Positions 5,189 through 20,246 of a stretch of 33,593 bases of DNA are shown one piece after another. The first letter of the stretch is position 1. Every line of letters begins with the position of its first letter. Source of the DNA: an uncultured Pelagibacteraceae bacterium (lineage in GTDB: Bacteria > Pseudomonadota > Alphaproteobacteria > Pelagibacterales > Pelagibacteraceae); assembly GCA_902552705.1 (NCBI GenBank), contig CACDHZ010000001.1, forward strand, positions 1 through 33,593. The letters run 5' to 3'. The position numbers and the translations under genes are program-made. The notes beneath the pieces were generated by a model that was not told the DNA's origin, searched no databases, and saw only the letters and a program-made list of their open reading frames with translations.

Positions 5189-6346
5189 ATGATTAAAAAT
5201 AAAATATCATTGCCAAAAATAAATAAATTTTTTTTAAAAAATAAAATTTCAATTCATGAAATAAAAAAATTTTTAAATGAAAAAGGTTTTTCTATTAAAA
5301 AACAAAACAAAAAGATTAATGATCATAATATTTATGTTGTATCAAAAACTTTTTTGGTTAGCTTGATAGTAATTTCATTATTTTCGATTTCTCCGATACT
5401 TATTAATTTTACTAAACAAAAAATGATTTATTCGAAGGATTATGCAAATAATTCTAAGAATAATTTGACAAAAGTTTTAGAAAATCAAGATGCCAAATTA
5501 GATAGTGACCTAGACGAAAAATATTTATTTGATGACATATTTGAATTTGATGATCTGCCATCAGACACTGTAAGATTAAGCGCAGTAACAATTCAAGAAT
5601 TGTTTAAGTCAACAGACTATAACTTAAAAGATATAAGAAAAAATAAACTAGTTAAACCAATTTCATTAACATTGCTGCCTAATGAAATTAAAAAAATAGA
5701 AAATTCACAAAAAAGAAAAGATTTATTTATTCAAATTATTTTGCCCTTAATAATTAAGGAAAATAATTACATAAAATCTGATCGAATGAAACTTTTCCGT
5801 ATTCTAAATAAAAGTAAAAATACTAAAGTAGAAAAAAAATGGTTAGCAAATAAGTTTAAACAATATGGAGTAGTAAATAATGATTTATCAACATTAAAAA
5901 TTAGAATGGATGAAGTGCCCATTTCTATGACTATTGCTCAAGCAGCTAAAGAAACTGGTTGGGGTACATCAAGATTTGCTCTAGAAGGAAATGCTTTGTT
6001 TGGTCAATGGACTTGGTCTGGTAAAGGACTTAGACCTAAAGGTGCAGATAGTGACAGTACTCACAAAGTTATGAAATTTAAAGTTTTACAAGCTTCAGTT
6101 AAAGCTTATCAAAGAAATTTAAATACTCATTCTTCTTATAAAGCTTTTAGAAGTGCGAGAGCTGAATTAAGAGATGAGGGAAAAAAATTAGATAGTTTAA
6201 TTCTTTCTAACTATTTAGATAAATATGCTGAAACTGGAAAAGAGTATGTTAAAATATTACAAAAAATAATTAAGCAAAATAATTTAACAGATTTTGATGA
6301 CGCTAAATTATTACCTTCAAGTATTGAATTAGAGAGTTTAATTTAA
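5189..6346 (+). CDS. Bax-like glucosaminidase-domain protein with N-terminal membrane anchor
   Basis: MTIAQAAKETGWGTSRFALEGNALFGQWTW is typical of the Bax/mannosyl-glycoprotein endo-beta-N-acetylglucosaminidase family; hydrophobic segment VSLIVISLFSISPILINF. Confidence 0.85.
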   Translation: MIKNKISLPKINKFFLKNKISIHEIKKFLNEKGFSIKKQNKKINDHNIYVVSKTFLVSLIVISLFSISPILINFTKQKMIYSKDYANNSKNNLTKVLENQDAKLDSDLDEKYLFDDIFEFDDLPSDTVRLSAVTIQELFKSTDYNLKDIRKNKLVKPISLTLLPNEIKKIENSQKRKDLFIQIILPLIIKENNYIKSDRMKLFRILNKSKNTKVEKKWLANKFKQYGVVNNDLSTLKIRMDEVPISMTIAQAAKETGWGTSRFALEGNALFGQWTWSGKGLRPKGADSDSTHKVMKFKVLQASVKAYQRNLNTHSSYKAFRSARAELRDEGKKLDSLILSNYLDKYAETGKEYVKILQKIIKQNNLTDFDDAKLLPSSIELESLI

Positions 6347-17866: not shown

Positions 17867-18115
17867 ATGACAAAAAAAATAGAGGGATTAAAATTACACA
17901 GTAGTGACACTGGTTCTTCAGAAATACAAATTGCATTGTTAACTGACAAAATTGAAATTCTTTCAAAACATATTGACAAATTTAAAAAAGATAAGCATTC
18001 GTCAGTAGGATTGTTAAGAGCGGTAAATAGAAGAAAAAAATTGTTGGAATACCTTAAAAAAAATAAAGTGGATTCTTACAAAAATGTGCTGTCGAAATTG
18101 AATTTAAGAAAATAG
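17867..18115 (+). CDS. rpsO: 30S ribosomal protein S15
   Basis: SSDTGSSEIQIALLTDKIEILSKHI...LLRAVNRRKKLLEYLKK. Confidence 0.98.
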   Translation: MTKKIEGLKLHSSDTGSSEIQIALLTDKIEILSKHIDKFKKDKHSSVGLLRAVNRRKKLLEYLKKNKVDSYKNVLSKLNLRK

Positions 18116-18133
18116 AAATCAAGATGGATAGAA

Positions 18134-18158
18134 CGAAACGAAACGAAACGAAACGAAA
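18134..18158 (+). repeat. Pentanucleotide tandem repeat (CGAAA)5
   Basis: Direct read: gaa-cgaaa-cgaaa-cgaaa-cgaaa-cgaaa-ag inside a mostly purine leader. Confidence 0.97.
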
Positions 18159-18173
18159 AGAAATGGAAATGAA

Positions 18174-20246
18174 ATGTTTAAAGTGTATAAGAAGGAAATT
18201 GAAGTAGCAGGAAAGAAGATAAGTTTAGAAACAGGTAAAATAGCAAGACAAGCAGACGGTGCAATAATCGCAAGATGTGGTGAGACAGTTGTTTTAGCAA
18301 CAGTAGTGGGTGCAAAAAAAGTAAATCCTGATGTAGATTATTTTCCATTATCTGTAAATTACCAAGAAAAATATTATGCAGCTGGAAAAATTCCAGGCGG
18401 ATACTTTAAGAGAGAGGCTAGGCCAACAGAAAGTGAAACATTAATATCAAGGTTAATTGATAGACCAATCAGACCCTTGTTTCCAGATGAATTTAAAAAT
18501 GAAGTTCAGTTATTACCAACGGTAGTTTCTTATGATAAAGAAAATGAAGCTGACATTTTATCAATTACAGCTTCTTCTGCAGCATTAGCTATATCAGGAA
18601 TGCCTTTTATGGGTCCTGTAGGAGCATCAAGAGTAGGTTATGTTGATGGCAAATACGTTTTAAACCCTTCAAAAACTGAATTAGAAAAATCTAAGTTAGA
18701 TTTAGTTGTGGCAGGAACAAAAGATGCTGTGCTCATGGTTGAGTCTGAAGCAAGAGGCTTAACAGAGGAAGAAATGTTAAATGCAGTCAAATTTGGCCAT
18801 GAAGGATTTGTCCCTGTGATCAAAATGATAGAGGAACTTGCAAAAGAATGCAGAAAACCAGAGTGGACTGTTGAAAAAAAAGATTTATCTGAAGTTAAAC
18901 AAAAACTCGAAGAAACTTTCACTGAAGATTTAAAGAAAGCTTTTGCAACGAGAGATAAACAAGATAGATCTAATCAAATTTCAGAGATAACTGATAAAGC
19001 TAAAAAACTTTATGAGGAAGATGAAAATTATACAGATCTAGATATAAACTCTGTGCTTAAAAACCTAGAAAAATCAATAGTAAGAACTGATATTTTAAAA
19101 AATAAAAATAGAATTGATGGAAGAAGTTTGTCAGATGTAAGGGCAATTTCATGTGAAGTTGGTTTTTTGCCAAGAACTCATGGCTCTGCTTTGTTTACTA
19201 GAGGAGAAACGCAGGCAATTGTTACTGCAACTCTTGGTACTTCTGATGATGAGCAAAGAATTGAGAGCTTAGATGGATTGCAAAGAGAAAGATTTATGCT
19301 TCATTATAATTTTCCACCCTTTTCAGTTGGTGAAACTGGAAGAATTGGAACTGGTAGAAGAGAAATTGGGCATGGTAAATTAGCGTGGAGAGCAATTCAC
19401 TCTTCTTTACCGTCAAAAGAAACATTTCCGTATACATTTAGAGTAGTGTCAGAGATTACCGAGTCTAATGGTTCTTCTTCAATGGCTACAGTTTGTGGAA
19501 CCTCACTTGCATTGATGGATGCCGGAGTACCAATTAAGGAACCGGTTGCTGGAATTGCAATGGGATTAATTAAAGAAGGTAAAGATTTTAGTGTTTTATC
19601 AGACATTTTGGGTGATGAAGATCACTTAGGTGATATGGATTTCAAAGTTGCAGGGACTAAAAATGGAATTACCTCCCTTCAAATGGATATTAAAATTACA
19701 GGTATTACATTTGAAATTATGGAGCAGGCATTAAGTCAAGCTAAAGAGGGAAGAATTCATATTTTAGGTGAAATGAATAAAGCATTAGACAAATCAAGAG
19801 CGGATGTTGGAAAACATACTCCAAAAATGGAAAAGATTACTGTTGATAAAAAAGATATTGCTGCAGTTATTGGAAAAGGTGGCGCAACTATTAGAGAGAT
19901 TGTTGAAAAATCAGGAGCAAAAGTTGATGTAAATGATGAAGGTGTAGTAACTGTTGCTGCTCCAGATGAGGAGTCAAGAAATATCGCTTTGCAGTTTATT
20001 AAAGATATCACTGCAAAAGCTGAACTTAATAAAATTTACTCTGGTAAAGTTATGAAAATTATGGAGTTTGGTGCTTTTGTAAATTTCTTAGGAAAACAAG
20101 ATGGTCTTGTTCACATTTCTGAGCTAGCTCCTAAAAGAGTGGAAAAAGTATCAGATGTTGTGAAAGAAGGTGATGAAGTAAAAGTTAAAGTTATTGGTTT
20201 TGATAGAGGTAAAGTTAAACTTTCTATGAAACAAGCTACTGAATAA
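18174..20246 (+). CDS. pnp: Polyribonucleotide nucleotidyltransferase (PNPase)
   Basis: [35 protein letters not shown]-terminal KH and S1 domains. Confidence 0.99.

What the first reader, a model, noticed from the sequence alone, without database searches (positions are those of the whole stretch)
18134..18158. (CGAAA)5 microsatellite in the pnp leader, 15 bp before the start codon
A pentanucleotide simple repeat in a mostly purine rpsO-pnp spacer (gatggatagaacgaaa...gaaatggaaatgaaatg). Such repeats are unexpected in a streamlined genome with spacers of a few bp. Copy-number slippage would change leader length and RBS context of PNPase, whose mRNA leader is an autoregulatory target in E. coli.
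Basis: partly seen in the sequence, partly recalled or inferred. Interest (0 to 1): 0.6.

Follow-up and report, generated by a model that had tools for sequence, protein, structure and literature searches.

The report
Conserved purine-rich pnp leader in SAR11
The five CGAAA repeats in front of the RNA-degrading enzyme gene pnp are real, but they are one species' extreme version of a short, unfolded, adenine- and guanine-rich mRNA leader that more than half of the Pelagibacter-like junctions sampled keep at this one spot, probably as a landing site for ribosomes in place of the classical signal.

Summary
It is not an isolated microsatellite. Of 139 distinct rpsO-pnp junctions from the same genus (Pelagibacteraceae), 85 carry a homologous 45-69 nt leader (60 nt, counting the rpsO stop, in 49). 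The leader is A/G-rich, predicted unstructured, built of spaced GAA units, and runs into the pnp start codon. It changes about three times more slowly than 4-fold sites of the flanking genes, and its last 14 nt about twenty times more slowly. Most other species have rpsO and pnp abutting (TAA-ATG), with a Shine-Dalgarno-like AGGAA in the last rpsO codons that leader species lack. On a gene tree the leader clusters in one clade with one secondary reduction. Exact (CGAAA)3 occurs in 8 of 399 genus genomes, always here. Lengths shift in 4-, 5- and 9-nt steps between species, so slippage is supported; within-species variation is untested. A protein-coding leader, structured RNA, RNase III hairpin, Hfq and CsrA are not supported. 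Best reading: an SD-poor translation-initiation leader that uncouples pnp from rpsO. Binding by PNPase or S1, or decoy AUGs, remain open.

The parts
17867..18115 (+). rpsO (ribosomal protein S15); its last codons AGA AAA lack the AGGAA found in the abutting rpsO-pnp arrangement
   Evidence: Pfam PF00312; rpsO 3'-end comparison
18116..18173 (+). pnp leader: A/G-rich, predicted unstructured, homologous to the leader in 85 of 139 genus junctions
18116..18133 (+). 5' segment AAATCAAGATGGATAGAA; genus consensus TCAAGATAGATAGAA
   Evidence: alignment columns 11-26
18134..18158 (+). (CGAAA)5 array; replaces the usual GGAAT-GGAA-CGAAA-CGAA-CGAAA core
18160..18173 (+). near-invariant GAAATGGAAATGAA directly before the start codon: 0.71 inferred changes per column against 14.0 at 4-fold sites
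18124..18207 (+). possible out-of-frame upstream ORF ([27 protein letters not shown], then TAG) overlapping the pnp start; AUGs in the same frame at -11 (18163) and -5 (18169) are conserved
   Evidence: its peptide is not under constraint
18174..20246 (+). pnp (PNPase, 690 aa, with KH and S1 domains)

Best explanation
The repeat is part of a lineage-specific translation-initiation leader of pnp. In the sister clade and in the more distant Pelagibacteraceae loci, rpsO ends directly at the pnp start, usually with an SD-like AGGAA inside the last rpsO codons, so pnp is probably translated by coupling to rpsO. In one clade about 58 nt of A/G-rich sequence was inserted, probably by tandem duplication of start-proximal (Y)GAAA units, and the rpsO-embedded AGGAA was lost. 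The leader keeps about 50-70 nt of mRNA before the pnp AUG single-stranded and A-rich, so that 30S subunits (perhaps through protein S1) can land and initiate independently of rpsO. Repeat units slip, so unit number drifts between species, while the 14 nt next to the AUG are held nearly fixed. Shown: homology, position, conservation, predicted lack of structure, AGGAA loss, clade pattern, unit-sized indels. Inferred: direction of evolution, uncoupling, ribosome landing, S1 contact, origin by duplication.
For: Clade-wide homologous leader at one locus. Mean pairwise identity 0.894 against 0.617 at 4-fold sites of the flanking genes; 4.4 inferred changes per column against 14.0, and 0.71 in the last 14 nt. 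Mean MFE -0.85 kcal/mol, z +1.3, 83 of 85 less structured than shuffles. Predicted openness around the start is higher than in the abutting clade: unpaired probability 0.73 against 0.58, MFE at -30..+30 of -0.09 against -1.33. AGGAA at the rpsO end in 45 of 50 short junctions but 1 of 85 leader junctions; the one abutting junction inside the leader clade (L028) again has AGGAA. Predicted anti-SD pairing is weaker with the leader, -3.6 against a median of -5.9 kcal/mol, although the anti-SD ACCUCCUUU is intact. A-rich upstream sequence and low structure promote initiation in E. coli and Flavobacterium (PMC7043885, PMC6847099).
Against: No expression data. Leader and short states differ mainly by one deep split, so the clade-level correlations are close to one event plus one reversal. 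The leader still has moderate anti-SD pairing (-3.6 kcal/mol), better than many genes in the window, so 'SD-independent' would be too strong. Two conserved out-of-frame AUGs at -11 and -5 are odd for a pure enhancer. Nothing shows why pnp alone needs it.
Confidence: 0.5

Rival explanations
1. The spaced GAA array is a single-stranded binding platform for a protein that controls pnp, most simply PNPase itself through its KH and S1 domains, repressing translation without RNase III.
For: Regular spaced GAA units with conserved letters; PNPase here has KH and S1 domains; E. coli PNPase also represses its own mRNA by pathways that do not need its phosphorolytic activity (PMC10362022); the motif occurs only at pnp.
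Against: No binding data; the sister clade has PNPase but no leader; Hfq and CsrA, the obvious alternatives, were not detected in 21 genomes each.
Confidence: 0.22
2. Out-of-frame AUGs in the leader start a short overlapping ORF that runs past the pnp AUG and diverts ribosomes, setting PNPase output; the act of translation matters, not the peptide.
For: An AUG at -11 in 83 of 85 leaders, at -5 in 79, at -35 in 62, all in one frame, with ORFs ending inside pnp. Frequent 9-nt indels keep this frame and several 5-nt indels lie upstream of AUG(-35). CGA, about 1% of Arg codons in the flanking genes, is the canonical Arg codon of this ORF.
Against: Synonymous positions are more fixed than in genes: no GAG in the four Glu codons of the array alignment against 22% GAG in flanking genes, and Asn AAC to Lys AAA differences outnumber synonymous CGA to AGA ones, so constraint is on nucleotides. 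Species with CGAAA runs lose the -35 AUG or its frame. In an A/G-rich leader any frame is mostly open.
Confidence: 0.15
3. A neutral or mildly deleterious microsatellite with no role, conserved only by recent descent.
For: Unit-sized length changes recur; the perfect array is species-specific.
Against: Inferred changes are about three times fewer than at 4-fold sites on the same tree, and twenty times fewer in the last 14 nt; exactly 60 nt in 49 of 85.
Confidence: 0.07
4. A DNA-level element (promoter, operator or recombination site) or an antisense transcript.
For: The complementary strand is a C/T-rich tract.
Against: No plus-strand promoter-like match between 17895 and 18400 and no terminator-like match; no Rfam match near threshold; orientation and position are fixed relative to the pnp start codon.
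Confidence: 0.06

Closest known systems
A-rich, low-structure translation-initiation regions (E. coli weak-SD genes; Flavobacterium johnsoniae Kozak-like sites; PMC7043885, PMC6847099)
   Same: A-rich upstream sequence, weak SD, low predicted structure around the AUG
   Different: Here it is a long, sequence-conserved, repeat-built leader at one gene in one clade, with variable unit number
E. coli rpsO-pnp intergenic leader with RNase III/PNPase autoregulation
   Same: Same gene pair and same position; PNPase has KH and S1 domains
   Different: No hairpin is predicted, so the processed double-stranded target is absent; no sequence relation was seen, but the E. coli leader was not aligned here
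Simple-sequence-repeat contingency loci in bacterial promoters and leaders
   Same: Short tandem units in a 5' region that change number by slippage
   Different: Mostly imperfect units under purifying selection; within-species variation not shown; housekeeping gene

Membership tests
E. coli-type PNPase autoregulatory leader (RNase III hairpin) | Stable stem-loop in the pnp leader | tested here: not met
   MFE 0 in the window; mean -0.85 kcal/mol and z +1.3 over 85 leaders
E. coli-type PNPase autoregulatory leader (RNase III hairpin) | RNase III gene present | tested here: met
   16 of 21 genus genomes, many incomplete; not found in the 72%-complete window genome
E. coli-type PNPase autoregulatory leader (RNase III hairpin) | PNPase represses its own synthesis through the leader | not testable with these tools
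   needs expression data
A-rich low-structure initiation region | A-rich sequence upstream of the AUG | tested here: met
   57% A, 24% G in the last 30 nt; but the AGGAA-containing short clade is 55% A too
A-rich low-structure initiation region | Weak SD pairing | tested here: inconclusive
   -3.6 kcal/mol: weaker than the abutting clade, stronger than many window genes
A-rich low-structure initiation region | Leader raises initiation | not testable with these tools
   needs reporters or ribosome profiling
Simple-sequence-repeat contingency locus | Tandem short units with unit-sized length changes | tested here: met
   between species only
Simple-sequence-repeat contingency locus | High-rate variation within a population switching expression | not tested
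Protein-coding upstream ORF | Amino-acid-level constraint with freer synonymous sites | tested here: not met
   no GAG at four conserved Glu codons; non-synonymous N to K differences more common than synonymous CGA to AGA
Structured cis-regulatory RNA (Rfam) | Match to a known family or conserved structure | tested here: not met
   no match near gathering score; no structure predicted
Hfq- or CsrA-bound leader | Hfq or CsrA encoded | tested here: not met
   0 of 21 genomes each, with positive controls

The most novel reading that the evidence does not exclude
The GAA-unit array is a structure-free autoregulatory or rate-setting element of pnp: a tandem ssRNA-binding platform (for PNPase or S1), possibly combined with decoy out-of-frame AUGs, whose unit number is tuned by slippage in a streamlined genome.
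Probability: 0.3. Interest if true: 0.68.

Novelty: new variant of a known kind. Interest (0 to 1): 0.45.

Why it matters
Pelagibacter-type bacteria are extremely streamlined, with a median spacer of 3 nt in 'Ca. P. ubique' (PMC2704228), so a conserved 58-nt unstructured insert in front of one housekeeping gene must earn its keep. The two sister clades form a natural experiment: coupled, AGGAA-driven pnp against an independent purine leader. This makes SD-poor initiation, and PNPase control without a hairpin, testable with simple reporters. Unstructured elements are missed by searches for structured RNA; the candidate-RNA survey of 'Ca. P. ubique' targeted long, GC-rich intergenic regions and does not mention pnp or rpsO (PMC2704228).

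Tried and rejected
Leader peptide: rejected as a protein-level feature. N-terminal extension of PNPase: its frame is closed by a stop within the spacer in 80 of 85 leaders. Structured RNA, hairpin, terminator, promoter: no support. Hfq or CsrA target: neither gene detected. Dispersed repeat family: the 26-mer core with up to 3 mismatches was found only at rpsO-pnp in 61 genomes, and the 3' motif occurs once in the window. IMG/VR scan for the conserved 3' end: nothing. A first strict 16S-end pattern failed because this genus reads GGATTACCTCC. Paper searches gave no description of this leader.

Full report
OBSERVATION. The window reads TAG (rpsO stop, 18113-18115) AAATCAAGATGGATAGAA (CGAAA)5 A GAAATGGAAATGAA ATG (pnp start, 18174). 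The repeat is at 18134-18158 as stated. It is the only perfect period-5 array of four or more copies in the window, none appeared in 200 Markov sequences, and it is the only (CGAAA)4 in the 0.91-Mb assembly. Genes are confirmed as S15 and PNPase. By named relatives the window is a Pelagibacteraceae (SAR11) genome.

RELATED JUNCTIONS. The rpsO protein was located in 163 of 201 genus genomes, and junctions were read from fetched loci. After removing duplicates, 139 distinct junctions remained with pnp N-terminal identity of at least 90%. Lengths below count the rpsO stop codon. They fall into classes: 85 have 45-69 nt, 4 have 24 nt, 50 have 3-14 nt (43 of them simply TAA-ATG or TAG-ATG). The usual leader is TAGAAGTCAAGATAGATAGAACGGAATGGAACGAAACGAACGAAACGAAATGGAAATGAA-ATG. 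The window's leader is homologous to it at both ends; its middle has become a pure CGAAA array.

SITE SPECIFICITY. Exact (CGAAA)3 occurs in 8 of 399 genus genomes, and in all eight it lies directly after rpsO. The 26-nt canonical core with up to 3 mismatches was found in 14 of 61 genomes, each time at rpsO-pnp (positions compared).

SELECTION. Mean pairwise identity of the 85 leaders is 0.894; 4-fold sites of the flanking genes in the same species give 0.617; shuffled and realigned leaders give 0.377. On a tree of rpsO plus 720 nt of pnp, leader columns need 4.4 changes on average against 14.0 at 101 4-fold sites; the last 14 columns need 0.71. The most variable array letters are the C positions; GAA letters hardly change. 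This is nucleotide-level constraint.

STRUCTURE. The window leader has an MFE of 0. Over 85 leaders the mean is -0.85 kcal/mol, z +1.3, with 83 of 85 less structured than their own dinucleotide shuffles, so base composition alone does not account for it. Around the start codon the leader clade is more open than the abutting clade.

SHINE-DALGARNO EXCHANGE. The last six rpsO bases carry AGGAA in 45 of 50 short junctions and in 1 of 85 leader junctions. Predicted anti-SD pairing is -3.6 kcal/mol for leaders and -5.9 (median) for short junctions. The 16S tail here reads GGATTACCTCCTTTCT, so the anti-SD core is intact. Many genes in the window have weaker predicted pairing than pnp, so the leader is SD-poor, not SD-free.

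PHYLOGENY. On a quick IQ-TREE of 139 rows, 90 rows form one side of a branch with SH-aLRT 99: all 85 leaders, the four 24-nt junctions and one abutting junction (L028). Leader against short needs two changes. L028 has AGGAA again. More distant Pelagibacteraceae loci (L055-L060) have 2-3 nt junctions, four of six with AGGAA, so the short state is probably ancestral. This is parsimony on a single-operon tree; the root is not inferred by the tree itself.

SLIPPAGE. Leader length needs 36 changes on the tree for 85 leaders. Indels between nearest neighbours are mostly 1, 4, 5, 9 or 14 nt. Runs of three or more CGAAA need five changes on the tree, that is, they arose separately (L001 = window, L034, L035, L037, L038); L229 and L231 look like single-unit loss and gain from the canonical core. 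So repeat slippage works on an evolutionary scale. Still, 49 of 85 leaders are exactly 60 nt. Single-cell assemblies can miscount repeats, and no within-species comparison was possible.

OVERLAPPING ORF. The 3' end AUGGAAAUGAAAUG contains AUGs at -11 (83 of 85) and -5 (79 of 85), out of frame with pnp; AUG at -35 is in the same frame (62 of 85). The usual product would be [22 protein letters not shown], ending inside pnp; in the window an AUG at -50 opens the same frame. Protein-level constraint is not seen: the four Glu codons never use GAG, although GAG is 22% of Glu codons in the flanking genes; C-to-A differences at Asn third positions (to Lys) outnumber synonymous CGA-to-AGA ones. A role of the act of translation as a decoy is not excluded.

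MECHANISM. The best-supported reading is a leader that gives pnp its own, unstructured, A-rich initiation region after losing the rpsO-embedded AGGAA. A-rich upstream sequence promotes initiation in E. coli (PMC7043885) and Flavobacterium (PMC6847099). E. coli PNPase controls its own mRNA in the leader, partly by binding without phosphorolysis (PMC10362022), so a binding platform is the main rival. The RNase III-hairpin form of that control has no predicted target here. Hfq and CsrA were not detected, RNase III was. All functional steps are inference; nothing here measures translation.

VERDICT. Observation confirmed; interpretation partly supported. The interest lies in the conserved leader and the two-state switch between sister clades, not in the five perfect copies.

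Noticed in passing
genus genomes G000-G020: No Hfq (TIGR02383) match in 21 genomes while Caulobacter and E. coli controls are positive; only one model was tried and many genomes are incomplete.
   Followed up: partly
L224-L228: The 16S rRNA 3' end reads GGATTACCTCC, not GGATCACCTCC, in five genus genomes including the window's own.
   Followed up: partly
L160: In this leader an AUG at -21 is in frame with pnp and open, which could give an N-terminally extended PNPase ([10 protein letters not shown]...).
   Followed up: no
L006, L051, L159, L163: Four species have a 24-nt junction such as TAGATAGAAGGAAACGGAAATTAG with stronger predicted SD pairing (about -6.4 kcal/mol), apparently a reduced leader that regained an SD.
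   Followed up: partly
window 5195-5274: Imperfect 42-nt tandem duplication (1.9 copies, 81% match), at the start of the ORF 5189-6346.
   Followed up: no
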